A DNA stretch of 64,000 bases, taken from the IMG/VR virus record IMGVR_UViG_3300037502_002621, positions 1-64,000 of that record; one strand, given 5' to 3'. The stretch is from a virus. The notes under the pieces were generated by a model. That model was not told the origin of the DNA and ran no database searches. It was given only the letters and a program-made list of their open reading frames with translations. Numbering within the stretch: the first letter of the stretch is position 1; each line of letters begins with the position of its first letter. The translations under genes were made by a program, and so were the position numbers. Positions 8,656-29,762 of the stretch are shown here, one piece after another.

Positions 8656-8675
8656 AATTATAATCTCCTATATAA

Positions 8676-8684
8676 ATTATAGCA
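8676..8684 (-). promoter_or_regulatory. Extended -10 promoter of the membrane module (L1)
   Basis: TGCTATAAT on the minus strand followed by TTATATAGGAG, which gives both transcription and ribosome signals. Same arrangement at 41484-41492 in L2 and similar to the fibre and connector promoters. Confidence 0.6.
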
Positions 8685-9057: not shown

Positions 9058-9058
9058 A

Positions 9059-13366: not shown

Positions 13367-13386
13367 ATATATACCTACCTATATAA

Positions 13387-13395
13387 ATTATATCA
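13387..13395 (-). promoter_or_regulatory. Extended -10 promoter of the fibre gene (L1)
   Basis: TGATATAAT on the minus strand followed by TTATATAGGTAGG before the fibre ATG. Conserved in L2 at 46562-46570. It gives the fibre its own transcript in addition to read-through. Confidence 0.55.
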
Positions 13396-13406
13396 TTGTA
13401 AAAATG

Positions 13407-16118
13407 CTATATTTTCCAGTTGTTAATGTAAATGGTAATATCGTCATTATCGCCCATTGTATAATCGTTGATCGCAAATAAGAACTTGACCGTTGTGCCA
13501 TCGGTGGCATAGATACCTACATTGGTTATTGGACTTGTGTTGCGTGTGCCACTATATGTGCTATATAAGTCTAAATCCAACCGATTTGGTGTATTAACTA
13601 AATCACGATTGATAATCACACGCTTGTTGGTTGATGAACTTGGGGCATTGTCGGTATATAACTTATTGGCATTTTCAGGTGTAAATCGTGTCGTATTGTT
13701 TATAATGTAATGGTATCGTAATGTTCCAGTAAAGGTTGAGAATAAGTCATTACCAACAACGATATTGCCATTTGCGTTATAATCATCGTTTGCTTGTAGC
13801 ATATATTCAAATACGGGTATTTCAAATGCGTCTTTATCATAAGTTAATTCAGTAATTTGAAGAGAATAATTACCTTGTGTTGAAACCGAGTTTCCATAAA
13901 AGTTATCTGGGACTTGAGTTAAATCGGTAAAAGGAATAATTGGGTCAGGTGTATAAGTGCTATTGTAATGTGCGATTGCGTCCGTTAAATCATCGGTGTC
14001 CAATAAGAAAAACTCATAAGCACTTGATTTGCCAACGCTATTGGTATAAACAATCGGTGTTTGAACATAAGTCGCACCAGTGGAATCTAAACGATAACCA
14101 AGCACATTGTTATCTTGATAATTGATATTAAATAACTTTGATTTGTGTAAATCGAAAATAGAACCATTGGCAACATGTCGCACAACTTCGGTTGTAATCG
14201 AAGTTGGTTTATATCGCCATTCGGCTATGGTGGTAAAATCAAAGTCCGTTCCTGCCAAAGAACCATTGAACACAAGTGCTTTGGACATTGGCAAATATGG
14301 TGTATCGTTATTGCCGTCTGTTAAAGATAATTCAATATAATCTTTGTATAATTGATTTCGATAAACTAAATTATCATCAGGAATCTTATAAGTGATAACG
14401 GAACTGTCTGCGATAATGTTTTCGGAACGACCAATGCGATTACGAGATAATGTATAAACCACATTGTAATATTCGTTGCCATCTTTAATCGTTGCGTCAA
14501 TAGACCTTTGCGTAATTACATAAAGTTGGTTGCTATCACGCACAATTTGTCCAAGTGCTAAAATACTTGCCAACGATGTATAACGAGCGTTGCGTATCTT
14601 TGTGCCTTCTACGGAATCGTTTGTGTGCGAAGTAATTAAGCGTGAAACAGACAATGCGTCAATGACTTTACCATTTTGATTAAAGTATTTTTCATCTTGA
14701 GCATTGTTATCGTTGTCGATAGAAACTTTAATATCGGCAACAGGGTAATATGCGACTTGAATTAAAATCTTATCGTTTGGAATTTCGTTTGCGAAGAAAC
14801 CAGTTGTGCGATAAGTTGGTCTTAACCAAACTTCATTATTGGTTAATGGATCAAGATAAAGGCGATATATTTTATTGTGGTCAGTTGTGCCTTCAAGCCC
14901 ATTTCTAAAAGATAATGGCATAATGATTTGGTTTGTATTCGGCAACCAATGAACACTTCTATCTTTTAAGTCAGGGTATGTCGTTGTGTTTAGCGTATCA
15001 AATTCAAACTTGTTATAAATCGTCATCTTTTTGCCAAACATTCTAATTTGTGGGTCGGCACCAACCAAAGCGTTAATGTTATCATAAATAGAACTTATAT
15101 CGGTTTCGCCATAATTAACTTTGAAATGTTCTAATGGTTCAGGCAACTCATCGGCAATCGTTTGTTTTTGTGCTGTTGAATAAGCACCAAAATTTGTCGC
15201 AACAATTAAGTCATACCATTCTTGGCGACTTAAATAATAACCAGTCGCAATTTGCGTTAAAATTGTTCCACCACTATTGACGAACACAAGTTCCATCGGT
15301 GGGAAAATACGCATAAACTCTATCTTGTCTATTTTGCTTGGCAATAAAACCTTTGCGTCTGCTTCAACATAAGTCAATGAGTTTGGTGTAATGTTCTTAA
15401 ATCCACCTTGTTTTGGCAACACAACCAAATTAGATGACTTAGCATTTTGTATGTTAGAAACCGAACGAGTGGTAAATTGATCATTGGAATTGATATTGCG
15501 TTCATAAGAAGTTGGGAATTGCGTATTTAATGTTTCCACAATAGCCGTATCTAAACCATTACGATTGATAAATGTTAATTTTGGTTGATAACCACTACTA
15601 ATATCGACATATGCTTTGGGAATTGCGTTAATTGCTCTTGCGATGTTCTTAACGGCATTAGCGACCGTAAAGTTTTCAAAAGACATAAACGGCATTGTCT
15701 TATCTTTGTCCAAGAACGCAGGAAACACAAATTGAACATTCAACTTGGCGATGGCGAACAATCTAATTAGCATTTCTTCTAAATCATAAGTATTAGGGGC
15801 AAACGCACAATTAGGCAAGTGTTTGTAAGCATACCATTCTAAGTATTCAACCACTTGTATTTCGTGTTCGTATTCGCCTGTGTGTATATATGTGCTTTCG
15901 TCACTCTTGATAACCCACCAAGTGTTAGTGTCGGCATGGTAGATAACCGTATTGACTTCAAATTCTTCTCGATATGTAGAATCGGTCACAACCTTAAACT
16001 TGGCATTACTTGGTGTATCATTCAAATTATCTTCAATGTTAAAAATACCCGCAATGTCTAATTCAACAAGTTGGGCATTGGTTAGTTTATTGTATAAGCG
16101 TATTTTTCCGTTTGGCAT
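13407..16118 (-). CDS. Tail protein, tail-associated/baseplate type, 903 aa (L1)
   Basis: The N-terminal ~380 residues resemble the Tal/gp44-like hub proteins at the tip of phage tails (RLYNKLTNAQLVELDI, WWVIKSDEST, EYEHEIQVVEYLEWY). The C-terminal half is beta-rich and probably forms accessory domains. No peptidoglycan hydrolase motif is visible. L2 copy 901 aa; differences cluster in a few exposed loops. Located directly upstream of the fibre gene, as expected for the fibre attachment hub. Confidence 0.75.
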   Translation of the reverse strand: MPNGKIRLYNKLTNAQLVELDIAGIFNIEDNLNDTPSNAKFKVVTDSTYREEFEVNTVIYHADTNTWWVIKSDESTYIHTGEYEHEIQVVEYLEWYAYKHLPNCAFAPNTYDLEEMLIRLFAIAKLNVQFVFPAFLDKDKTMPFMSFENFTVANAVKNIARAINAIPKAYVDISSGYQPKLTFINRNGLDTAIVETLNTQFPTSYERNINSNDQFTTRSVSNIQNAKSSNLVVLPKQGGFKNITPNSLTYVEADAKVLLPSKIDKIEFMRIFPPMELVFVNSGGTILTQIATGYYLSRQEWYDLIVATNFGAYSTAQKQTIADELPEPLEHFKVNYGETDISSIYDNINALVGADPQIRMFGKKMTIYNKFEFDTLNTTTYPDLKDRSVHWLPNTNQIIMPLSFRNGLEGTTDHNKIYRLYLDPLTNNEVWLRPTYRTTGFFANEIPNDKILIQVAYYPVADIKVSIDNDNNAQDEKYFNQNGKVIDALSVSRLITSHTNDSVEGTKIRNARYTSLASILALGQIVRDSNQLYVITQRSIDATIKDGNEYYNVVYTLSRNRIGRSENIIADSSVITYKIPDDNLVYRNQLYKDYIELSLTDGNNDTPYLPMSKALVFNGSLAGTDFDFTTIAEWRYKPTSITTEVVRHVANGSIFDLHKSKLFNINYQDNNVLGYRLDSTGATYVQTPIVYTNSVGKSSAYEFFLLDTDDLTDAIAHYNSTYTPDPIIPFTDLTQVPDNFYGNSVSTQGNYSLQITELTYDKDAFEIPVFEYMLQANDDYNANGNIVVGNDLFSTFTGTLRYHYIINNTTRFTPENANKLYTDNAPSSSTNKRVIINRDLVNTPNRLDLDLYSTYSGTRNTSPITNVGIYATDGTTVKFLFAINDYTMGDNDDITIYINNWKI

Positions 16119-16127
16119 ATATGTCCT

Positions 16128-16616
16128 TTACTGGTTTTTATAAGTAATTTTACCAAATATATTTTTGCTAACTTTGTAGTCTTGTCCCAATACAGTTTGA
16201 CCTGAAACGATTTTAAGGTAGTTCGCTTGGTTTTCTTCTTTTGCTTTCTTTTGTTGTTCTCTAAACCAACGATCAAATTCCATAATCGCAAATTGTATTA
16301 AGATTAAACCACCCGTAGTTGCTAACGCACCAAGTCCTTTGGTTGAGGCTTCGTTAATAAAACCCATACCAGCACGAGCAACTCGTTGTCCCTTTTCCCA
16401 CCAACCACCAGTCCATCGGTTCATCAATGGGTTAATTGGACGCATATATCGGTTATGTTCTACACCACCACGACTACCACCGAAGTTAAATAGTCTGCCT
16501 CCACCACCACCCTTAGAACCAGCACCTTTAATGGCAACGGGATTGCCGTTAATATCAAAATTCTTTGCTTGTTGCCCAGTCATATCTTCGACTAAAAAAC
16601 GATAAATGGTTGCCAT
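16128..16616 (-). CDS. Gly-rich protein with hydrophobic segment, candidate mini tape measure or internal protein, 162 aa (L1)
   Basis: Gly-rich N-terminal part (AGSKGGGGGRLFNFGGSRGG), a hydrophobic stretch at about residues 95-112 and a charged helix after it. It occupies the place between tail-tube-type and hub genes normally held by a tape measure protein, yet is far too short for a long tail. It could be a minimal tape measure or a DNA-ejection protein. Changes from L2 cluster around residue 85. Confidence 0.6.
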   Translation of the reverse strand: MATIYRFLVEDMTGQQAKNFDINGNPVAIKGAGSKGGGGGRLFNFGGSRGGVEHNRYMRPINPLMNRWTGGWWEKGQRVARAGMGFINEASTKGLGALATTGGLILIQFAIMEFDRWFREQQKKAKEENQANYLKIVSGQTVLGQDYKVSKNIFGKITYKNQ

Positions 16617-17848
16617 TAGTAAGCACCAACCTTAAAGGACAATGTTAAAGTCAAGACATCGCCATTCGTGTTTTGAACACCTGATTCGCTTAACTTCGCA
16701 TAGAATTTATCAACAATAAGAGTCCCAAGTGAGTAGCGATATTCTTTAATCGTAAATATTTGATTTGTATATGTCGTAGCACCACTACCATAGCGAGAGA
16801 ATTTGTATAAGTCATTAAACAATGCGTTTGCTCTATCATAGACAAACGAGTAATTTAATTTATTTTGGACTGCCAAGTTTCGGTCAATAGATTGATAACC
16901 ATTTGCGTATAGTTGATATGTGTCGTCATTTAACGACAAACTTGATGGAATTTCTAATGGTTCAACATCGTAAATCGTTCCTGTATCTTTGCCAACTTGT
17001 ATTGTTGTTTTCACAATATCGTTGCCCAATGCCACATTGTTCTTTACAATGGTAGCCGAACCACCAAAGAATAATAACACTCTGTCTAAACCATTGTTGA
17101 TAAATGGTTCATCGCTTTGAACACCATTAAACGACAAAGACACTTTGTAAATAGAATCAACATTTCCAACTTCGGTTGCTACACCATAAGTGTATGTGAC
17201 GGGACTTGCCGATGATAATGTTAATCCTCGTTGATATAACTTGCCATTATAGACAAACCAAAATATCGCAGGAATGCCAGTAATTGAAAATGGTGTCGTA
17301 TTAACATAATTGTGATATTGCGTATCAATATCGTTAGACCAATCGGTTGTCGCACTTGTTGGGTTATAACTACCATTGATTGTAAAATAATTTGGAATAG
17401 CAGTCGCACCAAGTCTTAATTCTGGTTTATCACTTGTGGTGTTAATCGTGTTTGGTGTTAAGATTTTGCTTGTGCCATTCGTTAAAGCAACCATATCGTA
17501 TTTGTTGCCACGCAAGGTATCAATAAGCGTTTTAATCTTATCTAAGACATAATCACGATCACTAAGTTGAATATCAAATCGCACTTGATATTCAAGTGGG
17601 GTAATATAATTAGTTCTAATGTTTAAGATTTCGGCTTGACCACTTTGCGAGATAACACCCATCGCTTTATAATTGCTAACGGACTTCTCTTGGTTTTGTA
17701 AAGCAATCATGTCCTTAATGTTTGCCACATAACGACTAACCGATTGTTCATCTTCAATTTGTTCGTAAAAAGAAGCGAGAAAAATTGTATTGTCGTTGAG
17801 TTTATCAACAAAGATTTGTCTTAATAAATCAATATCATATATTGCCAT
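16616..17848 (-). CDS. Virion structural protein, 410 aa (L1)
   Basis: Order suggests a tail-tube or tail-adaptor protein. The N-terminal ~130 residues (MAIYDIDLLRQIFVDKL) form a helical and strand domain; the rest is a beta-rich region with long Asn/Thr loops. No family could be named. Highly conserved in L2. Overlaps the 162-aa gene by one base. Confidence 0.65.
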   Translation of the reverse strand: MAIYDIDLLRQIFVDKLNDNTIFLASFYEQIEDEQSVSRYVANIKDMIALQNQEKSVSNYKAMGVISQSGQAEILNIRTNYITPLEYQVRFDIQLSDRDYVLDKIKTLIDTLRGNKYDMVALTNGTSKILTPNTINTTSDKPELRLGATAIPNYFTINGSYNPTSATTDWSNDIDTQYHNYVNTTPFSITGIPAIFWFVYNGKLYQRGLTLSSASPVTYTYGVATEVGNVDSIYKVSLSFNGVQSDEPFINNGLDRVLLFFGGSATIVKNNVALGNDIVKTTIQVGKDTGTIYDVEPLEIPSSLSLNDDTYQLYANGYQSIDRNLAVQNKLNYSFVYDRANALFNDLYKFSRYGSGATTYTNQIFTIKEYRYSLGTLIVDKFYAKLSESGVQNTNGDVLTLTLSFKVGAY

Positions 17849-17849
17849 A

Positions 17850-18494
17850 TTATACTCCCATTATTTGTGCGACTAAATCGCTTGTGTCCATTACCATTTC
17901 TTTTGGTGCTGATTCACGCAAAGTTAATCCCTTAGAAGAAGTTAATAAGCGTAATCCACTTAATGACGCAATCTTTGGTAATTCTTTTTCTAATATGCGT
18001 TCAATGTAAGCATAGTGAATGTTATAACGGAACTTAGACTTTTCGTTGCGTGTTTCATAAGCACGATTTGTTAATCTTCTTTGTGCGTTCCAATATGAAC
18101 GCTTACCCGTATTAAATGTGCCACGATATTCTGGTGTGATAACACCATTAGAATCAACCGAACCAACCGAGTAATCACGCTTTGATAGTGGGAAAACACC
18201 TGCTTGACTACCACGAGTTTGTTTTGAACCACGAAATGGATTACGAATAACTTTTGCGTCTTCCAAAATGTGATAATAAGGTGCGACCTTTTCGGCATAA
18301 TCGTTTCCAAGTTCAAAATATTGAACCGTAGGCGAAACCACCACAATGGGATTATTGTTAAACGCAATATTCTTCATATGTGGTTTGAATTGCTTAGTGG
18401 GAAACTTTTTTCTATCGCTAAATGGGAAAATGTCGGAAGCACTCATTTCCGTTTTAAGTGTGACGGCTAACCGACTTGCGATATTGTTTATCAT
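17850..18494 (-). CDS. Head-tail connector or tail-completion protein, 214 aa (L1)
   Basis: Position (third after the capsid gene) and size suit an HK97-gp10-like or tail-completion protein. A short exposed stretch (RNPFRGSKQTRGSQAGVF, around residues 84-101) differs sharply from L2 while both sides are nearly identical, suggesting a loop facing a variable partner. Confidence 0.6.
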   Translation of the reverse strand: MINNIASRLAVTLKTEMSASDIFPFSDRKKFPTKQFKPHMKNIAFNNNPIVVVSPTVQYFELGNDYAEKVAPYYHILEDAKVIRNPFRGSKQTRGSQAGVFPLSKRDYSVGSVDSNGVITPEYRGTFNTGKRSYWNAQRRLTNRAYETRNEKSKFRYNIHYAYIERILEKELPKIASLSGLRLLTSSKGLTLRESAPKEMVMDTSDLVAQIMGV

Positions 18495-18823
18495 TCTAAA
18501 GTCACCTGTGTTTCTTGAACATATGATTTCATTAAATGTCTAATCTTAATATTGCCTTGCTTATACACAAATGTTTGATTCGTCACTTGAAGCGTTAATC
18601 CATCGTGTAAGGTAATTACATCGCCTTTTACGAAATGGTGTTCGCCCCATATACCGATTACACAAGTGGGTTTAATCGCTTGACGATTAAATTCGCTTTC
18701 AAGCGTCATTGTTAATGGTTGAATAAAGTAATAGAAAAAGCGTTCGACATTGTCGTTATCGGGACTTTGCCATTTACCTTCGTAAATATATACTCTACGA
18801 TCAACTACATTAAACTTAATCAT
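18491..18823 (-). CDS. Head-closure (stopper)-type protein, 110 aa (L1)
   Basis: Small beta-rich protein; second gene after capsid, where stopper proteins usually lie. ATGA-type overlaps with genes on both sides show coupled translation. Three or four residues differ from L2. No signature motif; assignment from position. Confidence 0.6.
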   Translation of the reverse strand: MIKFNVVDRRVYIYEGKWQSPDNDNVERFFYYFIQPLTMTLESEFNRQAIKPTCVIGIWGEHHFVKGDVITLHDGLTLQVTNQTFVYKQGNIKIRHLMKSYVQETQVTLE

Positions 18824-19194
18824 TTTTGAAATCCATTTACTTTTTTAAGTTTCAATCTATTAGCAATAACAGAATCAACTTCTTGCGTAATTGGGTTTTC
18901 ATCTAAGTTCAATAGATTAAATACAATTAACACTTGGGCATACTTAAAGGACTTTTCTCTATCGGCAATTTTAGTCGCACTAAACGCAACACCTTCGCTA
19001 TCTTCGACTAATTTATCGTATATATCGCTTTCAATATCAATATCAGGGTTTAAGTCAAAGATACGAGTGACTAATTGTTCATATGCCGTATTTAACAACG
19101 CACCAACGGCATTATCTTCAAGATAATCTTTGGGAACAATTCCATATTCTTGTAAATCGGTTTCAGTAATAATGTAATCTTTTAATGTTGGCAT
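18820..19194 (-). CDS. Head-tail adaptor protein, gp6-like, 124 aa (L1)
   Basis: All-helical predicted protein of the size and position of gp6/gp15-type connector adaptors that extend the portal. The start MPTLKDYIIT is chosen because it is shared with L2; the two-codon extension here begins with TTG and is absent in L2. Preceded by its own promoter and a GGTAGG site. Confidence 0.65.
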   Translation of the reverse strand: MPTLKDYIITETDLQEYGIVPKDYLEDNAVGALLNTAYEQLVTRIFDLNPDIDIESDIYDKLVEDSEGVAFSATKIADREKSFKYAQVLIVFNLLNLDENPITQEVDSVIANRLKLKKVNGFQK

Positions 19195-19216
19195 ATTCAA
19201 GTCCTACCTATATGTA

Positions 19217-19225
19217 ATTATATCA
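19217..19225 (-). promoter_or_regulatory. Promoter of the connector-tail genes (L1)
   Basis: Extended -10 TGATATAAT on the minus strand just after the capsid terminator. It restarts transcription of the tail genes at a level independent of the capsid transcript. Conserved at 52386-52394. Confidence 0.6.
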
Positions 19226-19231
19226 TTTATA

Positions 19232-19266
19232 AAAAACAAAAAAGGTTGTCTTACGACAACCCTTTT
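19232..19266 (-). terminator. Terminator behind the capsid gene (L1)
   Basis: Seven-base stem GGTTGTC/GACAACC (19244-19250 with 19255-19261), followed on the minus strand by TTTTTTGTTTTTT. A strong rho-independent terminator that uncouples the abundant capsid message from the tail genes. Exactly repeated at 52401-52435. Confidence 0.85.
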
Positions 19267-19290
19267 GTTATAATTAAAGTTTTAATTTAA

Positions 19291-20160
19291 TTAGGCTGCG
19301 GCTTCGGTGAATTTCATCGCATAAGAGTCGATGACTAAGATTGAAGGTTCAGAGCCGTGTGCTAATGGCAAGACTAATTCGCCTTGAACACGCACACCAA
19401 TAAAGCCTTCTGCTTCAACAGTTCTTAATGCTTGGAGAGCATATGGGAACGCAACACCTTCGTAGTTTAACAGAATGAAATCAACACCAGACACATGTTG
19501 GGAAACCACAACATTTAGACCGAATAATTGACCGATAGTGCCGGGCAACACACCTTGTCCATTAAATAAATCTTTGAACGAAGCGTCTTGTCTTAATAAC
19601 TTTTCACCAGCCGTTCCAAGAACGATCGTGGTTGGGACAATACCATTCGTTGCGTTAGAGAAACTGGTATCAACAGTTCCGTCAATCTTAGCAGACGAAC
19701 CAAGTTTGAATGTAGCAATACCTTCTGCGATGGCATCAACTAAGTCTAAACCATTCGTATAGGTTTTTGCTTGGGCAAGTCCGAGCAACGCAGTATAGAA
19801 CAATTCCCCTGCTTTGTTTGCCATTCTTAACGCACCTTTAGCAACAACATCAGCAACGATGTCGGCTTGGATTGTGTCGATAGCGACTTGTGGGACTTTT
19901 TCATCGAACTTAATGTTTCTTTCTAAGACGATGGTTGCTTTCTTAGTTCCGACATTGGAAGTTCCAAAGTCATCACCAGCAGTTCCTACTTCGACAGCAG
20001 GAGCAAGGTTATACCAAAATTCGGCAACATTTGCTTGGATTAAACCAGCGAGTTCGGGCTTAACGGTGACACCACCGATAATCCCTGAGATTGGGGCGAT
20101 CGTTTGTAATACGACATTAGTCGCAACGGTATCGCCTAAATATGATTTTGAGAATGCCAT
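19291..20160 (-). CDS. Major capsid protein, 289 aa (L1)
   Basis: Forms the head shell. It lies right after the scaffold gene and before a strong terminator, and has the even Ala/Gly/Val-rich composition of phage coat proteins (TVATNVVLQTIAPISGIIGG at the N-terminus, SILVIDSYAMKFTEAA at the end). Probably HK97/P22-type fold. Its first ~33 codons are inside the tract identical to L2; beyond that, changes are sparse. Confidence 0.85.
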   Translation of the reverse strand: MAFSKSYLGDTVATNVVLQTIAPISGIIGGVTVKPELAGLIQANVAEFWYNLAPAVEVGTAGDDFGTSNVGTKKATIVLERNIKFDEKVPQVAIDTIQADIVADVVAKGALRMANKAGELFYTALLGLAQAKTYTNGLDLVDAIAEGIATFKLGSSAKIDGTVDTSFSNATNGIVPTTIVLGTAGEKLLRQDASFKDLFNGQGVLPGTIGQLFGLNVVVSQHVSGVDFILLNYEGVAFPYALQALRTVEAEGFIGVRVQGELVLPLAHGSEPSILVIDSYAMKFTEAAA

Positions 20161-20185
20161 AGTTGTTTAGTCCTCTTTTTACTTT

Positions 20186-20749
20186 CTACTTCTTCAACAA
20201 GTTCCGTAAATGTGGGTATTTCGAGATTAACCTCGCATAGACATCAGCATTTGGACTCGTTGTGGTTGGCGATTTGGGTGCTGTGCCAACAACAGCCGAT
20301 TTAGTCGTTTCTTTCATATATTCCGAATATTCTTTTTTCAATGTTTTCACGACCGATTCAATTTGGTCAGGTTCAGCATTGACTAAGCGACTATCGTTTT
20401 GAAAGAAACTTGGTAGTTCCGATTTTTGAAGTTGGTCTTTAATCAGGAATTGCTTTTTCTCAGTTTTTAGAGTGTTCAATTCGCTATTGATCGCAGTCCA
20501 TTTTTCTTCTTGCTCGGCTTTGAGTGCTTCTTCGGCAGTCATTTTCGCCTTAGCGAGTTGTTTTTCAAACTTTTCTCGTTCGGCTTTTGACGCTTTATTC
20601 ACTCGTTCGTCAATCGAACCTTTGATAGCGTCTAACTCACGCTTTAACGCTTCGTATTCTTCGACATTGACGGATTTTGGTGTTTCCACCTTTGGTTGCT
20701 CAACGGATTTCGCTTCGCCACCACTAACTGCTTTGACTTCTTCTGCCAT
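20186..20749 (-). CDS. Capsid scaffold protein, 187 aa (L1)
   Basis: Glu/Lys-rich with a central coiled coil (about residues 26-120) and a basic C-terminal helix ending YPHLRNLLKK that would contact the coat protein. This composition and its position directly before the capsid gene mark a scaffold. DNA and protein are 100% identical to L2, unlike any other gene of its length here. Confidence 0.85.
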   Translation of the reverse strand: MAEEVKAVSGGEAKSVEQPKVETPKSVNVEEYEALKRELDAIKGSIDERVNKASKAEREKFEKQLAKAKMTAEEALKAEQEEKWTAINSELNTLKTEKKQFLIKDQLQKSELPSFFQNDSRLVNAEPDQIESVVKTLKKEYSEYMKETTKSAVVGTAPKSPTTTSPNADVYARLISKYPHLRNLLKK

Positions 20750-20859
20750 AAAACCTCTTTTCTACCTTGTTTAGCGAGTTGGTGTCCTCGTTTTGGCAAT
20801 TCTCACGCTTTAACGACATCGTGGCAGTCGATAATGTAAAAGATTTACACTACAAGAAA
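20750..20859 (-). promoter_or_regulatory. Leader of the scaffold-capsid transcript (L1)
   Basis: About 100 nt untranslated leader with the arm TTGTAGTGTAAA at the predicted start and two small hairpins (CGAC/GTCG and CGAG/CTCG) before an AGAGG ribosome site. Identical in L2. May stabilise or regulate the message. Confidence 0.4.
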
Positions 20860-20868
20860 ATAATACCA
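20860..20868 (-). promoter_or_regulatory. Promoter of scaffold-capsid genes (L1)
   Basis: Extended -10 TGGTATTAT on the minus strand, in the gap between portal and scaffold genes. A copy of the TACACTACA arm of the IG inverted repeat overlaps the predicted start, suggesting regulation. Confidence 0.5.
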
Positions 20869-20932
20869 TATATTTTCAAGCACTTTTTCACAACTCTTGT
20901 AAATTACAAACAACTATGTTAAAATGTAAAAT

Positions 20933-22435
20933 TTATTCTTCTGGATTAACTAAGTCTTGTGCTTGACCACGAGTAAAGTTGGTTTGATTATCTTGTGAAT
21001 CTTGGTTTGCTAACGCTTCTTGTTGTCTTTGGAAGTTCGTTGGGTTATTACCACCATTACGCAACATTTCGGCTTGTTGATTTGGCGATGGTTCGACATC
21101 ATTGAGATATTCGTCAATGTTTCTCACCCACGATAATTGTTGGATCGCATAGCGTTTGTTCAATAATCCGATTTGGTTTAATGCCACGAATTGGTTAATC
21201 TTGTCCATATCGTTGCTTGGTAGATTATGCGAATATTCAATTTCCATTTCGTCCATATTAAACAAATAGCGTGTGCCTTCACGACCACCATATTGTTCTA
21301 CAAAGGTTAGCGTTAAGAAAATAACTTCGGAAAGACTTGCTGTAAATTGTCTTTCTTTTTCTTTTGCTAAGTCTAAGAAGCCTTTAAGTTTTAATTTCAA
21401 CGCAGGTTCGGAACTATTTTGTGCAAACTCGGCAGAATTAAAATTTGGAACACGAGAAACCATTTCGATTTGTTCATTCAAGTCATCAACCAAGCGTTGT
21501 AAGTCCGTTTGGTCTAATGCGTTTTGTAAAAACTTTGCGTCAGCGTTATCGCCTTCGAGTGCTAATACTCTTTGGTTCTTTAACATGTTGATAAAATTTT
21601 CTTGTTCGGTTTCATTACCAATGCGAACATTCTTTAACATCAACACATACTTGACCATATCATCGACATTCGTAATCCGATTGTTTTGTAGCGAGTTGTA
21701 AGCGTCAATCAATTCATACACTGGTCTTGCGTCACCATACATCAATTCGTTGTTCTTGAATTCGATTAACGGAACAAACGCAAAGTTGTGTGGCACAGCA
21801 AATTCTATCAGTTGTAAATCGGCAGTCGTGCCAGTCATATCGGCAAACACTGTTAAATCCGTAATGGACTTCGTGCGTAAATTATAAAACATTGTGTCGG
21901 TATAAACATAAGCACGATAATATGCTGTTTCGATATTGTTTAAGTATTCGGTTTGTCTAACAAGTGTAAAAGCAAATAATGGTTTTGGTTTTACATGCGT
22001 ATCATAAACAACATTCGTTAATTCTGGGTCAAGCGAAACAAAGCGTGGGAATGTATCGCCTTGTTCGGTATATAGCAATAAATACCCAGCACCAGCAATC
22101 GAAGCGTTTAATCCGACATTGTAAAATTCTTTTGCGAAACCACTATTGCGAATCTTTTTATTGAACTCAAATAATTTCTTGCGTTCTTTTTCTTTTTCGG
22201 AATAAGTCGTGAAGTCAGGCAATTCACCAATAAACATTTCGGTTGCCATGTCGCAAATATATTTTGCTTTATTGATTGTGTGAGTAGAAACTGGTAATTC
22301 ACCACGATAATATTTTTTATCTTTGGTGACGGTTTGAATTACATCAATCGTGTGTTGTTGTAATGCTAAACGCAAAATCTCATTAAACCGATTTTGGTCT
22401 TGTAGTTCTTCTCGGCTTACATTAAGTTTAATCAT
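20933..22435 (-). CDS. Portal protein, SPP1 gp6-like, 500 aa (L1)
   Basis: Twelve-subunit ring through which DNA enters and leaves the head. Length, order (between large terminase and scaffold) and blocks such as YDTHVKPKPLFAFTLV and VYELIDAYNSLQNNRI fit SPP1-type portals. Gln/Asn-rich C-terminus (about 440-500). Overlaps the terminase by four bases. L2 copy nearly identical (V50I, N476D region). Confidence 0.9.
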   Translation of the reverse strand: MIKLNVSREELQDQNRFNEILRLALQQHTIDVIQTVTKDKKYYRGELPVSTHTINKAKYICDMATEMFIGELPDFTTYSEKEKERKKLFEFNKKIRNSGFAKEFYNVGLNASIAGAGYLLLYTEQGDTFPRFVSLDPELTNVVYDTHVKPKPLFAFTLVRQTEYLNNIETAYYRAYVYTDTMFYNLRTKSITDLTVFADMTGTTADLQLIEFAVPHNFAFVPLIEFKNNELMYGDARPVYELIDAYNSLQNNRITNVDDMVKYVLMLKNVRIGNETEQENFINMLKNQRVLALEGDNADAKFLQNALDQTDLQRLVDDLNEQIEMVSRVPNFNSAEFAQNSSEPALKLKLKGFLDLAKEKERQFTASLSEVIFLTLTFVEQYGGREGTRYLFNMDEMEIEYSHNLPSNDMDKINQFVALNQIGLLNKRYAIQQLSWVRNIDEYLNDVEPSPNQQAEMLRNGGNNPTNFQRQQEALANQDSQDNQTNFTRGQAQDLVNPEE

Positions 22436-24063
22436 ATTTTTATATTCGCACCCCTAAATGCCTTGTTAATTCTTTCAATGTTGCTACCTAATAAGATTTT
22501 ACCACTATTTACATAGCGTATTTCGTTAAGGTATTGAGTTGTGCTATCTACTTCGTCATCGTGGTCGGAATTTGGGAATCGCATAAACTCTTGAATGTAG
22601 TCCTCGATAGTTGGGTCAAGTTGTTCGTGTGGAACAAAAATGTTTCCTGCTTCAAAGTAAGGTGTGATAGCACTTGCTCTTTGAACTTTGGATTCATCAG
22701 GGTTAATCGCAACGACACCACCGACTTCTTTGTTTAGCGTTTCTATGACTGCCCCACCGTTTGCTCTCTTTTCAATATAAATTCTTCGAGCCGTTGGGTA
22801 AGTGACTGCCATTTGCTTAATCATCTCGATGGTTTCGGTAAAACTCATTCTGCGTTTGACTCTTTTTAGCAGATAATGGTTCGCACCTTTGCGTCCCCAA
22901 ACTTGTCCTGCCACATAGTCGGAAGTCTTTTTGTTATCGACTGCCAAGTCCCACGACTGCACAACTTCATCAAACACAGTGGGTAAATCGCTCTTGGTGT
23001 AAAACTTAAACATATGCCGTTGGAACAAGTTGCCGTTCTCAATACTGGGTTTGCCCATATACAAAGAGTTCCACACACGCTTACCAACCGACTTGTAAGT
23101 TGCTTCTGCCCATTGTGCGTCACGACCCAACTCTGGACATAGCATTTCGCCTTTGGAACGCTTTAAGACATCGAAACCACCATCGGCAACTTCGGGTATG
23201 TTAATCACAATCCAGTTTTGTTCTTTGGACAATTTACCAATCAAATCTTCTTCATGCCAACGAGTATGGATCACAATGATTGCGTTGCCCTTGCCTTCGG
23301 CTCGTGTTAGCACAGAGTCACGAAACATCGTTTCGACATTATCTCGTATCGTAGGGTTATACGCTTCTTGACCATTCTTGTATGGGTCATCGACAATAAT
23401 CAAGCGACCACCATTACCCGTAATACCACCCGTGATACCAACGGACATAATGCCACCACGATTGCCCTTGACTTCAAACAAGGATTTGTTATCTTGGGAA
23501 GGTGATATGTCCAAGTTCCATAGTTCTTTCCAATACTTCTTTGCCTTTTGACGATTCTTGTCGCCAAAGCGTTCGGCTAATTCCGAGTTATATGCTGTTA
23601 AAATTGCCATCGAGTTAGGATTACGACCGACAAACCAACTTGGTAATGTTTCCGTAAAGGTATAAGACTTACCAACTCGTGGTGGAACGCTTAAACAAAT
23701 GCGAACGGATTTACCTGCTTCGACTTTGGTGACGACATCTTGGACGACATTTGCTAAAAATTGATGAAACTTAGTGGGAATGAATCCTGGGATTGTATAT
23801 CTTAAATAATCCAAATAAGATATTCTCGCATTTTCTTTTTCAAGTTCTTTGCGATAGATTTGTAGATTCTCTTCGGGTATTGCCTTACGGAACTCTAACA
23901 ATTTCTTAATGCGATCATCGTCAATGATATTGTTCTTAACCTTGACTTTGTCAATTTCGGTCTTTGTCTTTAAGATAGACAAATCATTCTCGACTTCTTG
24001 CTTTTCGGAATCAATTAAAGCCTTTGCCAATTTAGATTCTAAGTCATTACTTTTTTTTGGCAT
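22432..24063 (-). CDS. terL: Terminase large subunit, 543 aa (L1)
   Basis: DNA-packaging motor. ATPase: Walker A VPPRVGKS (about 126-133), Walker B LIIVDD (about 221-226), coupling motif around VIHTRWHEEDL. Nuclease: SWDLAVDNKKTSDY (D372), EKRANGGAVIETL and the acidic DHDDEVDST segment for metal binding. All catalytic motifs intact. Starts inside the end of the zinc-ribbon gene over an A-rich stretch. In L2 a few residues differ, mainly near the N-terminus. Confidence 0.95.
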   Translation of the reverse strand: MPKKSNDLESKLAKALIDSEKQEVENDLSILKTKTEIDKVKVKNNIIDDDRIKKLLEFRKAIPEENLQIYRKELEKENARISYLDYLRYTIPGFIPTKFHQFLANVVQDVVTKVEAGKSVRICLSVPPRVGKSYTFTETLPSWFVGRNPNSMAILTAYNSELAERFGDKNRQKAKKYWKELWNLDISPSQDNKSLFEVKGNRGGIMSVGITGGITGNGGRLIIVDDPYKNGQEAYNPTIRDNVETMFRDSVLTRAEGKGNAIIVIHTRWHEEDLIGKLSKEQNWIVINIPEVADGGFDVLKRSKGEMLCPELGRDAQWAEATYKSVGKRVWNSLYMGKPSIENGNLFQRHMFKFYTKSDLPTVFDEVVQSWDLAVDNKKTSDYVAGQVWGRKGANHYLLKRVKRRMSFTETIEMIKQMAVTYPTARRIYIEKRANGGAVIETLNKEVGGVVAINPDESKVQRASAITPYFEAGNIFVPHEQLDPTIEDYIQEFMRFPNSDHDDEVDSTTQYLNEIRYVNSGKILLGSNIERINKAFRGANIKI

Positions 24064-24283
24064 GTTCTCGGCTACTTTCTGGTGGGTTTATTTCACACGC
24101 ACCATCATCACAAGCAACTTCATGTTCATAATGCGTTGCTTCAATGAGACAACCACACTTGACGCATTTAGCATATTCCACATCGCCTTTGACGAATGGG
24201 ACAAAATCGACGCTATCACACTTAGGACATTTAGTCGTTTCAGGTGGCAAATAGACAACGGTATATTTCGTATTACTTTTCAT
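24047..24283 (-). CDS. Zinc-ribbon protein between terminase genes, 78 aa (L1)
   Basis: CPKC (C19, C22) and CVKCGC (C40, C43, C45) form a zinc ribbon, followed by an acidic, Cys-containing tail (C58, C63) and basic end AKKK. The start MKSNTKYTVVY is chosen for its GGGGAGG ribosome site. Overlaps both terminase genes, so it may assist packaging or DNA recognition (inference). Confidence 0.8.
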   Translation of the reverse strand: MKSNTKYTVVYLPPETTKCPKCDSVDFVPFVKGDVEYAKCVKCGCLIEATHYEHEVACDDGACEINPPESSREHAKKK

Positions 24284-24863
24284 CGTGTATAACCTCCCCA
24301 GTTTGGGTATCGACAATCGGTGCTTCACGCTTCTTCACTTCCAAAGTCTTAATGGTTTCATTCTTTTCAATGATCATCAAAGCCTTCTTGTCGGCTTCGC
24401 TTAACGACTCGAACATCTTGGCATAATCATTTTGTTCGGACTTGGCAATATTCTTTCCATAGGTCTGTGGCACTTGATTCTCCAGTAAGAACTTTAAGGC
24501 ATTGAATCTCACATTGGGTGGTATCTCTTCTTCCAACCAAACAGGTTCGCCCTCTTTGTTTAGAATTTGTCTTTTGGTTGTTTGCTTACCCATCGCCATT
24601 TCATACATCGACATCGACAGTAGGGTATTGGCAAACTCTTTGCCCTTGACGAACGCACCCAATACCTCAGGGTATTTAACTGTCAGTTCGTCCCATTCCT
24701 TTTTGGACAGTGTTAAGAATTTAGCAATTTCAGCACTGGACTTACCAGAAGTTGCCCACATATAGACATTTGCTACCGTTTGTTTAATCACATTCGGTGT
24801 TGATTCGTCCGTATGAGTCGCAACAAAATCATGTGCCATATTTGATACAATCTTTTTAGCCAT
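24273..24863 (-). CDS. terS: Terminase small subunit, 196 aa (L1)
   Basis: Recognises the packaging site and hands DNA to the large subunit. A helix-turn-helix-like N-terminal part (about 24-60, ATSGKSSAEIAKFLTLSKKE), a central helical region for oligomer formation and an acidic C-terminal tail. First gene of the late operon with a promoter 30 bases upstream. About seven residues differ from L2. Confidence 0.8.
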   Translation of the reverse strand: MAKKIVSNMAHDFVATHTDESTPNVIKQTVANVYMWATSGKSSAEIAKFLTLSKKEWDELTVKYPEVLGAFVKGKEFANTLLSMSMYEMAMGKQTTKRQILNKEGEPVWLEEEIPPNVRFNALKFLLENQVPQTYGKNIAKSEQNDYAKMFESLSEADKKALMIIEKNETIKTLEVKKREAPIVDTQTGEVIHDEK

Positions 24864-24894
24864 TCAAAAAACCCCATTTCATCGACATATTCAA

Positions 24895-24903
24895 ATTATA
24901 CCA
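24895..24903 (-). promoter_or_regulatory. Late operon promoter (L1)
   Basis: Extended -10 TGGTATAAT on the minus strand with an A/T-rich upstream element. Drives terS onward. Conserved at 58064-58072. Confidence 0.65.
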
Positions 24904-25113
24904 TAAAAAAACATATACCCCCATTAAATCCCATATTATTCTTAAAGCACATTCAAAACCCATTGTTTTGTTTATAGAAATTTTTAATTCTTTTAGATAA
25001 ATACCCCATCGTTTATATAAGTGGGGGGTAGTTATATATAATATATGTATATATAATTATATACATAAATATTATGTATTTAAGTAAGATATATATCTAA
25101 CATATATAACATA

Positions 25114-25208
25114 TATAATCATATACTACATATATAACTAATATAATCATATAAATACATATAACATCTATAATCATATACTAATGTATACACATATAAT
25201 ATCATATA
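25114..25208. repeat. Iteron-like direct repeats beside the late promoter (slot 1)
   Basis: Four copies of TATAATCATATA or close variants at about 25114, 25142, 25169 and 25195, spaced 26-28 bases apart. The even spacing and single orientation resemble plasmid or phage iterons. The array is kept at 58307-58401. Confidence 0.6.
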
Positions 25209-25243
25209 AAGAAGATTACTTCTTTAAGTAGTATTAAATACTA
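25208..25243. repeat. Two adjacent inverted repeats next to the iterons (slot 1)
   Basis: AAAGAAG-ATTA-CTTCTTT (25208-25225) and the palindrome TAGTATTAAATACTA (25229-25243). Both are kept unchanged at 58401-58436, although surrounding sequence drifts. Likely protein-binding sites. Confidence 0.55.
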
Positions 25244-25340
25244 TGTATATTATATAATCTTTGATTGCTAACAATGACTTTGGTATTGGCTAACATAAGC
25301 ATAACTTGACGATGGTCTAAATCTAAAAAACATTGAAAAC

Positions 25341-25408
25341 TTTACGGATTACATTAGGACTCTGTCCCCCATCTTTCGGTGTGTCTATAATTTGATACCC
25401 CACACCCC
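25341..25408. other. Strongly conserved non-coding block, candidate packaging or recombination site (slot 1)
   Basis: 68 bases with one mismatch to 58534-58601, more conserved than neighbouring non-coding DNA. Contains GGACTCTGTCC (short hairpin) and ends in the GC-rich GATACCCCACACCCC. It is about 500 bases upstream of terS, where cos or pac sites are often found. Function inferred only. Confidence 0.45.
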
Positions 25409-25948
25409 ACCTATTTTCGCTATCATTTTTAGATTGGTTTGTCAATAGGCAAATAAATGCGTGTCTATCGCTACTATTTCACACACGCTATAAAATGCCG
25501 ATTCTATCGCAGTTATTTTACATAGTGTGGATCTTGTGGTTATTATTTAACAACCTCCACATAGTCCCACATAGAATGGGCCTCTTATCACAAGTGGGAA
25601 TAAATGTCAAGCGTTTCCCACCTTGTCCCACTATTGCTACATACCCCCAGGGGTATATTCTTAGCCCTTGTATTCTATATCTTGTGAAAACATATTCTAT
25701 ATAATAGCGTTTATAAGTCATTAGACAAGAGAAGAGATATTTTGATATAAACATACCCAATAAGACCTTTCGTTGATTATAGGTTATATAAACATATAAA
25801 AACGCTATATGGGGTTAATTGATTGCGATACTGTGACAAACAAGAATCAATAGACCCGAATGGGTAGAACTTGGCCGCGATTGGTTGTTGGTTGCTATTA
25901 GTTTAATGATGAAATAAAGAACCCATGTAGATATTTTGATTTTAGGTG
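25409..25948. other. Variable non-coding part of cargo slot 1
   Basis: About 540 bases unlike the corresponding part of slot 2. Short frames on both strands are not convincing. Contains several TCCCACATAG / GTCCCAC-type words that also appear in slot 2, suggesting shared but reshuffled control sequence. Confidence 0.4.
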
Positions 25949-25976
25949 TTGACATTTTATTTGATAGTGGTATATT
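25949..25976 (+). promoter_or_regulatory. Promoter of the + strand cargo genes (slot 1)
   Basis: Perfect -35 TTGACA (25949-25954), 16-base spacer and an extended -10 TGGTATATT (hexamer 25971-25976). The best consensus promoter in the window, giving a leader of about 120 bases. Being opposite to the phage operons, it is probably active outside the lytic programme. Confidence 0.8.
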
Positions 25977-26103
25977 GATGGTGTCGTTAGTTGCTCTGGG
26001 CAAGTGAGAACAAACCCAAAGCGTGGATCTTTGAAAACTCAAACCATTATCAATAAATGCTCTTTTATGTTGTGCCTTTGAATAATTAAAAGGAACAAAC
26101 AAA

Positions 26104-26463
26104 ATGAGCAAGAACAAAACATTTGAAGACAAGGTTGCAACTATCATTCACGAAATGAATCGCAGTTTATATGACTTAGGATTGGAAACAAGAATCACAA
26201 TTCACCCAATCTCGATGAGTTCGTTCGTGGTTGCTTACTCTTCCACAAACAAAGAATCAAAATTCTCTCATCAATTCATCGAGTCAAATGATATGTCAAT
26301 GACTTATGCTTTTTTATGGGCCATTGCCTCAAATCTATATTTCTTAGATAGATTTATCAAGGCAAATAAAATTAGTTTTAACTTCAAAGAAGACAAAATT
26401 CAAGCAATGATTCAAAGCAACCTCCAAGCGTTAATCAATCAAAAGACATATTTAATCAAGTAA
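26104..26463 (+). CDS. Hypothetical cargo protein, 119 aa (slot 1)
   Basis: No recognised family. Begins MSKNKTFEDKVATIIHEMNR; mixed alpha/beta with a helical C-terminus and no membrane helix. AAAGGA ribosome site. Found only in this slot; no relative in slot 2. Could be an accessory (defence, exclusion or anti-defence) gene because of its own strong promoter and opposite direction; this is inference. Confidence 0.75.
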   Translation: MSKNKTFEDKVATIIHEMNRSLYDLGLETRITIHPISMSSFVVAYSSTNKESKFSHQFIESNDMSMTYAFLWAIASNLYFLDRFIKANKISFNFKEDKIQAMIQSNLQALINQKTYLIK

Positions 26464-26561
26464 AAAAAAGAAAGGCAAAGGCACAACATATAAGGGCATT
26501 TGTTGGTAATCAGTTCGTTCCTTTATGGGTATTTGATACCCAATTAAAGGAGGTTCAACAT

Positions 26562-26930
26562 ATGAACCAATACGAAGAAGAATTTGTAAAATTGTTTAAT
26601 GAAAAGATTCAAGAAATTGAATCAATTATGAATCGCAATCACATTGAATTTGATGACTTAATAGAATCATTCAATGAATTTGCTACTGCGAACGATATGA
26701 ACGACTATATTATTCATACAAATAATAAGGCCACATGGGACTATCTAAACACCACAAATGATGAAGAAGAGATCCAAGAAGGAAAATCCGTTGAATCCTT
26801 TGACAAGTCAAAACCTTATTTCTTAATTGAATATGACGCATATTTTAGGTCGTTAAATTGTGACGAGTTAATAGAACACATTCAAAGTGTATTAGAAGAA
26901 TCTAAGATATACATCAAAGACAATTTCTAA
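26562..26930 (+). CDS. Acidic hypothetical cargo protein, 122 aa (slot 1)
   Basis: Very rich in Asp/Glu and Asn (for example TTNDEEEIQEGKSVES), predicted helical, with an excellent AAAGGAGG ribosome site. Strongly acidic small proteins in phage accessory loci include DNA mimics, but no family match can be claimed. Shares the promoter of the 119-aa gene and ends at a strong terminator. Confidence 0.75.
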   Translation: MNQYEEEFVKLFNEKIQEIESIMNRNHIEFDDLIESFNEFATANDMNDYIIHTNNKATWDYLNTTNDEEEIQEGKSVESFDKSKPYFLIEYDAYFRSLNCDELIEHIQSVLEESKIYIKDNF

Positions 26931-26975
26931 AATGTTATCTAACAAATACCCATAGAAGAACGAACAAAGAAAATT

Positions 26976-27015
26976 AACCAAGCGTGATTGAAATCGTGCT
27001 TGGTTTTTTTATTTT
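26976..27015 (+). terminator. Terminator of the + strand cargo transcript
   Basis: AACCAAGC / GCTTGGTT arms (26976-26983 and 26998-27005) followed by TTTTTATTTTG on the + strand. Confidence 0.9.
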
Positions 27016-27225
27016 GTTTAATCGTTCAACGAATGGAGGCCAGTTATTTATGCGATTTTATAGGATCTTGAGAATGATAAAATATAATTTTGATATGAAA
27101 ACAAAACCAACAAAGGCCAGCCACAATTTAACAAGGAAAAAACCTTAACCCCCCCTAAAAAAAGTGATACCCCCCATACAGTCCCATAAATTTTTGTTTC
27201 ATTTTTGTAATTAAAAATGTTGATT
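27016..27225. other. Right part of cargo slot 1, non-coding
   Basis: No gene seen. From about 27155 the sequence matches slot 2 again (CCCCTAAAAAAAGTGATACC), marking the right end of the variable slot. Confidence 0.5.
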
Positions 27226-27257
27226 AAACAAAAAACCATTACAAATCCGTAATGGTT
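27226..27257 (-). terminator. Terminator of early operon E1
   Basis: AACCATTAC / GTAATGGTT arms (27234-27242 and 27249-27257), followed on the minus strand by TTTTTTGTTT. Lies 40 bases after the last early gene. Repeated at 61768-61799. Confidence 0.85.
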
Positions 27258-27296
27258 CTTAGGATTTTAAGGGTAGGGGGTATGTTTGATTACAAT

Positions 27297-27830
27297 TTAA
27301 TCGTCATTGTCGGGTAAAAATAATTCATTATTAGACGCTTCGGTATCTTCATCAACTTTGCCAACATCGGTTTGATATTTGGTTATATCTTTTACACGCA
27401 AATCAATGTATTGTTCTAACTCGGCTTCATCGGCAGACTTGGTTTGTGCGTTATATAATTCCATGTCTAACTTAAAGTTCTTATCATCAACAATGGTTGG
27501 ACTTGGGTATTTGATAATGCCTGTGACGACATATACCCGTCTTGCTCCCCAACGATCAACTGTCCCCGTCATATGAACCATATCGTTTGGTTGTAGTGTG
27601 CCGAAGATAATACGCAAGTGCTTAAAGATAACGATTAACCATTTCTTGCGTTGGTAATAACCGAATTGAACCCACATCTCGTCATAGTTTTTATGACGCT
27701 TTACACGCCTTATTCGACCATCTCCAGACCAATTCTTAACACCCAAACCTTCTCCTGTTAAATAGAATGTCTCAGCCTCAGCAGTGCGTGGAAAAAACTT
27801 ATATTTCCTACCCTTGTCGAACTTAGCCAT
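27297..27830 (-). CDS. Hypothetical last early gene, basic with acidic tail, 177 aa (E1)
   Basis: Unknown. A basic N-terminal part (KFDKGRKYKFFPRTAEAE), a beta-rich middle that may be an OB-like barrel (MVHMTGTVDRWGARRVYVVT) and an acidic tail ending FLPDNDD. The layout (nucleic-acid-binding core plus acidic tail) is like SSB proteins, but the match is weak. Overlaps the methyltransferase by 8 bases; in E2 it overlaps the 70-aa gene instead. Confidence 0.75.
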   Translation of the reverse strand: MAKFDKGRKYKFFPRTAEAETFYLTGEGLGVKNWSGDGRIRRVKRHKNYDEMWVQFGYYQRKKWLIVIFKHLRIIFGTLQPNDMVHMTGTVDRWGARRVYVVTGIIKYPSPTIVDDKNFKLDMELYNAQTKSADEAELEQYIDLRVKDITKYQTDVGKVDEDTEASNNELFLPDNDD

Positions 27831-29553
27831 TGATTAAACTTCCAAACAATGCCATTAAGACATTAACGACAATGGAATCACCTGCTTGGTGGTATAAAGA
27901 TGAATTGCTTTGATTTGGTTGTGCCAAGTCAAACGCTTGATCACTAAATCCCATTAGTCGATAACATTCTCTTGGTGTTAATTTGCGTATGCGTAAGTTG
28001 TTATTAACTTTCTTTGGATCTTTGTAATCTCTCGCAAGTAGTGTTGGCGACAAACCATCTTGATTATAAATGTTGCCGTTTTCTCTACCATTTGCTTGAA
28101 TGTTTCCGTCTATCATTAACTTTGGTTCATTTACCACTACACCAACATCGTTGCTGTTTAACAACACATTTGGCACACCTCGTTCCATCGCAGGTATTGT
28201 GCCACTTAATCTATCTTCAAAGTAAGCACGATGGTCTTGTGTGTTCAATCTTCCTTTATCATCTTCCCAAGTAATGTAATTGGCATATTCTTTTGTTTCA
28301 ACGACTGCCGTCACGCTACCGTGATTTTCCATCACAATGGGCGATATGCCATTAGGGCTAACGATATTGGTAGCATTATGATTACTTGGACTATAATTGC
28401 CAACCACTACCACACCAACATCATTGTTTTGCGTTTTAATCGTTTGAATCATTTGCTTTTGAACTACACCACGCTTTTGTTCTGGACGATTGATATACAC
28501 ACCATCGCCTTCATACGCTAATGCGAAACCTAAATTGGTATCTTCGGGAACAACGATTGCTTGTGAATTATGATTTGGCATAGTTAAAGTTTGCGATATA
28601 TCACTAACTGTGCGATTGTATAAATCTAACGATTGTGGTTCGTTTGAATTATAATCAATCTTATCTAACATTTCTGGTAAGCGTTTGTCTTGCGACTTAA
28701 ATACATTTAACACTTTATCGCTAAGATAATATTTCTCATCAACTTCTTTTTCCAACATGTCTTTTAATCGTAATTTTAATGGAATGGGTTGTGGAAACCG
28801 ATATTGGTAATCGCCTAAAATACTAATCATAAATGCTCGTTCTCGGTTTTGTGGAATGCCATAATCTTTGGCATTTAGCACTTCAATATGGTTAGAATAC
28901 CCGAGTTGCCGTAATCGTTCGTCCCATCGCTTAAAGTCTTGTATATAACGAGAACCAATGACATCTGGGACATTTTCCATTAACAATACTTGTGGCAATT
29001 CATTACATTCCGATAAAATGCGTTCTACTTCCCATAATAAACCACTACGGGTATTGGTATCACTCATTCCTTTACCTTTACCAGCCTTTGATAGGTCTTG
29101 GCAAGGAAAAGAATAAGTTAAAATATAATCATACTTATTGGTTTCGGTTATATTCAAGTGTTCGGCTTTAACCGACATAATATTAACCTTGTTGTTGGTA
29201 TTGATAATGTTGTTATAAACATTACGCAACCATTCTTCGCCTTTTCTAAGTAGCGTTTCCAACTTGGCAGGTTCGTTATAATCAAGCGACACACCAAGTT
29301 GGTTTAACCGAAAGGCAATTTCTTCTTTGGTTAATCCTTGTGTCCAATCATCATATTTGCGAACATGTATGTCGTTATACGCTTGAATGGAATTAACTTG
29401 CCATTCAACAATCGTGCTATGAACGATATTCACACCCAAGTTTTTCAATGCTTGGTGTTGTGATCCTATACCAGCAAACAATTCGATTAACTTAACGGGC
29501 TTGGTAATCTTGTAATAAGGTATAAATCCATCAAAGATACTTACTTCGTTCAT
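27823..29553 (-). CDS. DNA cytosine-5 methyltransferase, 576 aa (E1 only)
   Basis: Transfers a methyl group from SAM to cytosine C5. Motif I ELFAGIG (about 24-30), catalytic PCQ (Cys151), motif VI ENVPDVIG (about 193), motif VIII QNRERAF (about 235), and C-terminal RKLTPRECYRLMGF with AGDSIVVNV. The long segment between VIII and IX carries the target-recognition part. No restriction enzyme is nearby, so it probably protects phage DNA. The start MNEVSIFDGF overlaps the upstream stop by ATGA. Absent from E2. Confidence 0.95.
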   Translation of the reverse strand: MNEVSIFDGFIPYYKITKPVKLIELFAGIGSQHQALKNLGVNIVHSTIVEWQVNSIQAYNDIHVRKYDDWTQGLTKEEIAFRLNQLGVSLDYNEPAKLETLLRKGEEWLRNVYNNIINTNNKVNIMSVKAEHLNITETNKYDYILTYSFPCQDLSKAGKGKGMSDTNTRSGLLWEVERILSECNELPQVLLMENVPDVIGSRYIQDFKRWDERLRQLGYSNHIEVLNAKDYGIPQNRERAFMISILGDYQYRFPQPIPLKLRLKDMLEKEVDEKYYLSDKVLNVFKSQDKRLPEMLDKIDYNSNEPQSLDLYNRTVSDISQTLTMPNHNSQAIVVPEDTNLGFALAYEGDGVYINRPEQKRGVVQKQMIQTIKTQNNDVGVVVVGNYSPSNHNATNIVSPNGISPIVMENHGSVTAVVETKEYANYITWEDDKGRLNTQDHRAYFEDRLSGTIPAMERGVPNVLLNSNDVGVVVNEPKLMIDGNIQANGRENGNIYNQDGLSPTLLARDYKDPKKVNNNLRIRKLTPRECYRLMGFSDQAFDLAQPNQSNSSLYHQAGDSIVVNVLMALFGSLING

Positions 29554-29762
29554 TCGTTTGTTCCTAACCATTTCGTAAAGTCATTGATGGTCTTAAATGT
29601 AAATGGTGCTAAATCGTTCATTGGGAACTCAACGATAATTACCCCACTACTTAATTCACGAATCTTGGCAATCCGTTTGAACAAGATACAGTTAATCACA
29701 TAACCTTCTAATCCATCTCGGTTATAAGAGCAACCAATACCCTTTTGTTTTAGTATTGGCAT
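29550..29762 (-). CDS. Hypothetical early protein, 70 aa (E1)
   Basis: Small mixed alpha/beta protein; unknown. Start MPILKQKGIG overlaps the RusA stop by TAATG; a start seven codons earlier is possible. The order RusA then this gene is kept in E2. Confidence 0.7.
   Translation of the reverse strand: MPILKQKGIGCSYNRDGLEGYVINCILFKRIAKIRELSSGVIIVEFPMNDLAPFTFKTINDFTKWLGTNE

What the first reader, a model, noticed from the sequence alone, without database searches (positions are those of the whole stretch)
20063..20941. 879-bp tract with no differences between copies
From the capsid start through the scaffold and a non-coding leader to the portal end, 20063-20941 and 53232-54110 match base for base, while flanking genes differ every few dozen bases. 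Silent and non-coding sites are included, so selection on protein cannot explain it. It points to recent gene conversion, or to the place where an assembler could cross between two strain genomes.
Basis: seen in the sequence. Interest (0 to 1): 0.7.

Follow-up and report, generated by a model that had tools for sequence, protein, structure and literature searches.

The report
Recent gene swap between phage strains
The assembled DNA holds two related copies of one bacterial-virus genome joined end to end, and an 879-base stretch around the head-scaffold gene is identical in both, most likely because the two strains swapped it recently; it is also the likeliest place where the assembly program jumped from one strain to the other.

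Summary
In detail: 20063-20941 and 53232-54110 are identical over 879 bp in copies that otherwise differ about every 16 bases; the next longest identical run is 256 bp. Constraint does not explain it: the scaffold gene has 0 changes at 119 synonymous sites (neighbours dS 0.15-0.43), and scaffold is poorly conserved in the only close relative. The tract is the core of a 1.36-kb low-divergence segment, as expected after recent allelic exchange; the phage encodes a Sak annealing protein.

The setting matters more. G000 (64,576 bp) is two whole ~31-33 kb units head to tail, whose ends are homologous neighbours inside a second, 242-bp identical tract, so it behaves as a closed two-genome circle. 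The relative G001 is a single, permuted unit. The two-unit circle and two single circles cut at the 879-bp tract have identical k-mer sets up to k=880. Best reading: two co-occurring strains, one recent homologous exchange, probably concatenated by the assembler, most plausibly at this tract. Reads are needed to prove the crossing. Both processes are well known; interest is low.

The parts
20063..20941 (.). 879-bp identical tract T, copy 1
   Evidence: exact match to 53232-54110
53232..54110 (.). 879-bp identical tract T, copy 2
19802..21157 (.). Low-divergence segment (6 differences in 1356 bp) of which T is the difference-free core
   Evidence: change-point fit
20186..20749 (-). Head scaffolding protein gene (187 aa), wholly inside T
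   Evidence: phrog_172 E=1.3e-9; dS=0 between copies
20750..20932 (-). Non-coding leader between portal stop and scaffold start, inside T
   Evidence: no Rfam match, no unusual fold (z=0.02)
19291..20160 (-). Probable major capsid gene (289 aa); its first 98 nt lie in T
   Evidence: gene order; homologue in G001, 68% aa; no PHROG hit
20933..22435 (-). Portal gene (500 aa); its last 9 nt lie in T
   Evidence: phrog_64 E=1.7e-65
22432..24063 (-). Terminase large subunit gene
   Evidence: phrog_38 E=5e-106
3671..4327 (-). Sak single-strand annealing protein (second copy 36804-37460): candidate recombinase for the exchange
   Evidence: PF06378 E=9e-44
33022..33263 (.). Second identical tract R (242 bp); the contig's two ends both lie in its other copy
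1..33136 (.). Genome unit 1 as laid out in the contig
33137..64000 (.). Genome unit 2 as laid out in the contig (continues to 64576 in G000)

Best explanation
The contig joins the genomes of two co-occurring strains (about 94% identical) of one circularly permuted or circular, roughly 31-33 kb tailed phage. In a recent co-infection one strain received the other's portal-end/leader/scaffold/capsid-start segment by homologous recombination, plausibly through the phage's own Sak annealing protein, which leaves an 879-bp difference-free core in a 1.36-kb low-divergence segment. Because that core is the longest exact repeat between the strains, it is also where an assembly graph takes the shape of a figure of eight; walking both loops in turn gives the head-to-tail two-genome contig. 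Shown: the identity, its excess over chance, dS of zero, the closed two-unit layout, the identical k-mer sets, the Sak gene. Inferred: recency and direction of the exchange, the role of Sak, and that the strain switch happened at this tract.
For: Identity and uniqueness. Zero of 119 synonymous sites changed in scaffold against dS 0.15-0.43 in the adjoining head and packaging genes. Scaffold is only 50% identical to the relative's, against 63% portal, 68% capsid, 83% TerL, so constraint is not the cause. Two units: the genes shared with G001 occur in both units in the same order. Contig end 64576 aligns to 33145 and contig start to 33137, with a 9-bp overlap, both inside a 242-bp identical tract. 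The contig starts exactly 127 nt before the first difference; COBRA (PMC10914622) reports that metaSPAdes ends contigs at branches with maxK bases, and uses maxK 127. The two-genome circle and two circles of 33,169 and 31,398 bp cut at T have the same k-mers up to k=880. G001 is a single unit of 31,627 bp opened in the tail-fibre gene, its own ends overlapping 146 bp at 97.9%. CheckV (PMC8116208) documents assemblers concatenating copies of one genome; PenguiN (PMC11443906) explains why de Bruijn assemblers cannot phase strains across conserved stretches longer than k. Phage Rad52-like recombinases exchange diverged DNA (PMC3945230).
Against: A pure short-read assembler would normally stop at an 879-bp shared tract rather than pass it twice, so either coverage or pair rules were used, or the linkage is real. 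The contig end stops 124, not 127, nt into tract R, so the k=127 signature is exact at one end only. Outgroup polarisation shows no strain flip across T (205:210 against 108:97, p=0.44), though this test has little power. No third strain was found, so the donor cannot be named. Sequencing technology and assembler of G000 are unknown.
Confidence: 0.6

Rival explanations
1. Real allelic exchange, but the assembly switched strains elsewhere (for example at the 242-bp tract R where the contig also ends, or the 251/256-bp tracts), so the flanks of T are correctly linked.
For: Contig ends lie in R; the two-genome circle also equals two circles cut at R up to k=243; an odd number of switches anywhere gives the same layout.
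Against: Tracts of 242-256 bp can be spanned by ordinary read pairs; 879 bp usually cannot.
Confidence: 0.2
2. Assembly collapse: the strains differ in the interior of T, but the assembler kept one version and reused it for both.
For: Assemblers simplify strain bubbles by keeping one path (PMC10563150).
Against: A shorter bubble bounded by shared tracts over 127 bp was kept in both alleles (3757-3780); all other differences, about 6%, were kept; at k=127 both edges need reads that join each strain's flank to at least 127 bp of T.
Confidence: 0.1
3. A real two-genome molecule: a recombined dimer, concatemer or phage-plasmid dimer made from two strains, with T made identical by conversion within the molecule.
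For: The contig closes on itself as a two-unit circle; conversion between tandem copies would give such tracts.
Against: The relative is a single unit; ongoing conversion in one molecule should leave more than one long tract, and only one is seen.
Confidence: 0.07
4. Two related prophages integrated in tandem in a bacterial chromosome.
For: Head-to-tail order on one strand.
Against: No tyrosine or serine integrase match, no flanking host DNA seen, and the ends meet inside a phage gene at homologous positions.
Confidence: 0.02
5. Extreme nucleotide-level constraint (overlapping regulatory or packaging signals) keeps the tract identical.
For: The leader holds a short block conserved with G001 (about 20793-20828).
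Against: Scaffold is 50% identical to G001's protein and most of the leader aligns poorly; constraint would have to act on all 879 sites.
Confidence: 0.01

Closest known systems
Concatenated-genome (high k-mer frequency) contigs of IMG/VR described with CheckV
   Same: One contig holds more than one copy of a phage genome head to tail (PMC8116208)
   Different: Here the two copies are different strains (94%), so it is not a repeat of one identical genome and a k-mer duplication signal would be weak
Homologous-recombination mosaics of phages with Rad52-like recombinases (De Paepe 2014, PMC3945230)
   Same: Near-identical segment between otherwise diverged phages, with intermediate-identity flanks, and a Sak annealing-protein gene in the genome
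   Different: Between strains of one uncultivated phage species; donor and direction unknown; no experiment
IMGVR_UViG_3300025646_000198 (G001), the only close relative found
   Same: Same gene order, single unit of 31.6 kb; scaffold, portal, terminase, Sak and SbcD-like genes shared
   Different: About 50-83% protein identity in the head genes, single copy, opened at another point

Membership tests
Recent phage homologous-recombination mosaic | A segment of near-total identity between genomes of lower overall identity | tested here: met
   879 bp at 100% in a 94% background
Recent phage homologous-recombination mosaic | Silent and non-coding sites equally free of change | tested here: met
   0/119 synonymous sites in scaffold; leader identical
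Recent phage homologous-recombination mosaic | Flanks of intermediate identity (traces of homologous recombination) | tested here: met
   3 differences in 261 bp left and 3 in 216 bp right, about 1.3% against 6% background
Recent phage homologous-recombination mosaic | An identified donor lineage | tested here: inconclusive
   no further strain found; near-identical records may be left out of the searches
Assembly-concatenated two-genome contig | Whole genome present twice in the same order | tested here: met
Assembly-concatenated two-genome contig | Shared exact tract longer than the phasing length of the data | tested here: inconclusive
   879 bp; library insert length and read type unknown
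Assembly-concatenated two-genome contig | Summed read depth on the tract and no reads linking the flanks as laid out | not testable with these tools
   no reads held
Tandem prophages | Integrase and attachment-site junctions with host DNA | tested here: not met
   no tyrosine or serine integrase; ends close on each other inside a phage gene

The most novel reading that the evidence does not exclude
The two-strain molecule is real: a stable double-genome phage or phage-plasmid circle in which gene conversion makes stretches of the two genomes identical.
Probability: 0.04. Interest if true: 0.7.

Novelty: new member of a known kind. Interest (0 to 1): 0.2.

Why it matters
It warns that this record is two strain genomes, not one 64-kb phage, and that gene linkage across 20063-20941 should not be trusted. 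It also gives a clear natural case of short-tract exchange in the head-gene module of a little-known phage group, and a worked example of why k-mer data cannot tell a two-genome circle from two single genomes.

Tried and rejected
Named phage relatives by DNA: none. Other strains through portal, terminase, a structural protein, a 285-aa conserved protein and exact DNA patterns: only G001 came back, plus distant terminases. Leader as a known RNA or stable structure: no Rfam match, z-score 0.02. Outgroup polarisation to detect a strain flip at T: no signal. Integrase search for the prophage reading: negative.

Full report
OBSERVATION. Positions 20063-20941 and 53232-54110 are identical over all 879 bases. 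In the surrounding collinear block (12065-25408 against 45240-58601, 94% identical) differences come every 16 bases on average and the next longest identical runs are 256, 140 and 132 bp. Taking the whole contig as a circle, there are eight other exact tracts longer than 127 bp, all of 132-256 bp (the 127-bp run at position 1 is the end of tract R). At the local rate of 4% the number of such runs expected in the block is about 1e-13, and even at 2% about 5e-6. The tract sits in a wider segment, 19802-21157, with 6 differences in 1356 bp, so its edges are graded rather than abrupt.

NOT CONSTRAINT. The scaffold gene, wholly inside the tract, has 0 changes at 119 synonymous sites, while dS in neighbouring genes is 0.15 (capsid), 0.20 (portal), 0.26 (TerL), 0.43 (TerS) and 0.27-0.29 in the 903-aa and 410-aa genes downstream. 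Against the only close relative, G001, the scaffold protein is 50% identical, below portal 63%, capsid 68% and TerL 83%, and most of the non-coding leader aligns poorly. Selection on protein or on DNA signals cannot plausibly hold 879 sites fixed here.

WHAT THE CONTIG IS. G000 is a virus record of 64,576 bp. It holds the same core gene set twice in the same order and on the same strand. Its last base aligns to 33145 and its first to 33137, with a 9-bp overlap and no gap, and both ends lie within the second copy of a 242-bp identical tract, R, 33022-33263. Taken as a circle it is 64,567 bp and exactly two units. G001 (IMGVR_UViG_3300025646_000198, 31,627 bp) is one unit with the same order, opened within the tail-fibre gene, and its own ends overlap by 146 bp at 97.9%; so the natural genome is most simply one unit, circular or circularly permuted. 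No tyrosine or serine integrase was found, which argues against tandem prophages.

WHY THE TRACT MATTERS FOR ASSEMBLY. The two-unit circle has the same k-mer set as two single circles of 33,169 and 31,398 bp cut at T, for every k tested up to 880, and as two circles cut at R up to 243. T is thus the one place where ordinary short reads and pairs cannot tell the two topologies apart. The contig starts exactly 127 nt before the first difference from the internal copy, which is what a metaSPAdes graph with maxK 127 leaves at a branch (PMC10914622); at the other end the distance is 124, which remains unexplained. CheckV describes contigs in which assemblers concatenate copies of one genome (PMC8116208), and the general failure to phase strains across conserved stretches longer than k is described with PenguiN (PMC11443906). 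Against this, such assemblers usually break at a long shared tract instead of passing it twice, so coverage or pairing rules, or real linkage, must have carried the path through.

WHY COLLAPSE ALONE IS UNLIKELY. A short bubble at 3757-3780, bounded by identical tracts of 172 and 134 bp, is kept as two alleles. An assembler that kept that bubble and all other differences is unlikely to have merged the 35-50 differences expected in T at 4-6%. The identity is therefore most likely real in the sample and the result of recent homologous exchange. The phage carries a Sak single-strand annealing protein (PF06378, E=9e-44), whose kind promotes exchange between diverged phages (Rad52-like recombinases; PMC3945230). 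Its part in this event is inference.

LIMITS. No reads, no assembly graph, and no third strain were available; near-identical records may be hidden from the searches. The direction of exchange, the true linkage across T, and the assembler are unknown. An attempt to detect a strain flip across T by polarising differences against G001 gave no signal and has little power.

VERDICT. Known phenomena in a little-known phage; low interest.

Noticed in passing
33022-33263, contig start 1-127 and contig end 64453-64576 (L003): The contig's ends are homologous neighbours inside a 242-bp identical tract, overlapping 9 bp; start is 127 nt and end 124 nt from the nearest difference. The 3-nt shortfall is unexplained.
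   Followed up: partly
L008:1-146 and L009:11482-11627 (G001 ends): The relative's contig has an imperfect 146-bp terminal overlap (97.9%), so it is probably a complete circular or permuted genome missed by exact-repeat tests.
   Followed up: partly
20793-20828 and 53962-53997: A short block in the non-coding leader upstream of scaffold (ACTGCCACnATGT ... GTGAGAATTGCCAAA) is conserved with G001 while the rest of the leader is not; possible regulatory site or leader peptide.
   Followed up: partly
5349-5488, 25072-25226, 38494-38624, 58265-58419: Very AT-rich intergenic regions share an iterated TATATGATTATA-like motif at two distant places of each unit; possible origin or protein-binding array.
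   Followed up: no
9059-12065 against 42558-45240: The C-terminal part of the tail-fibre gene differs strongly between strains (about 68% DNA identity where alignable), typical of receptor-binding variation.
   Followed up: no
25400-32280 against 58600-63700: Accessory region differs in content between units: unit 1 has a DNA methyltransferase (27823-29571) between its 177-aa gene and RusA and a PAPS-reductase-domain gene (30211-31161) after RusA; unit 2 lacks both.
   Followed up: no
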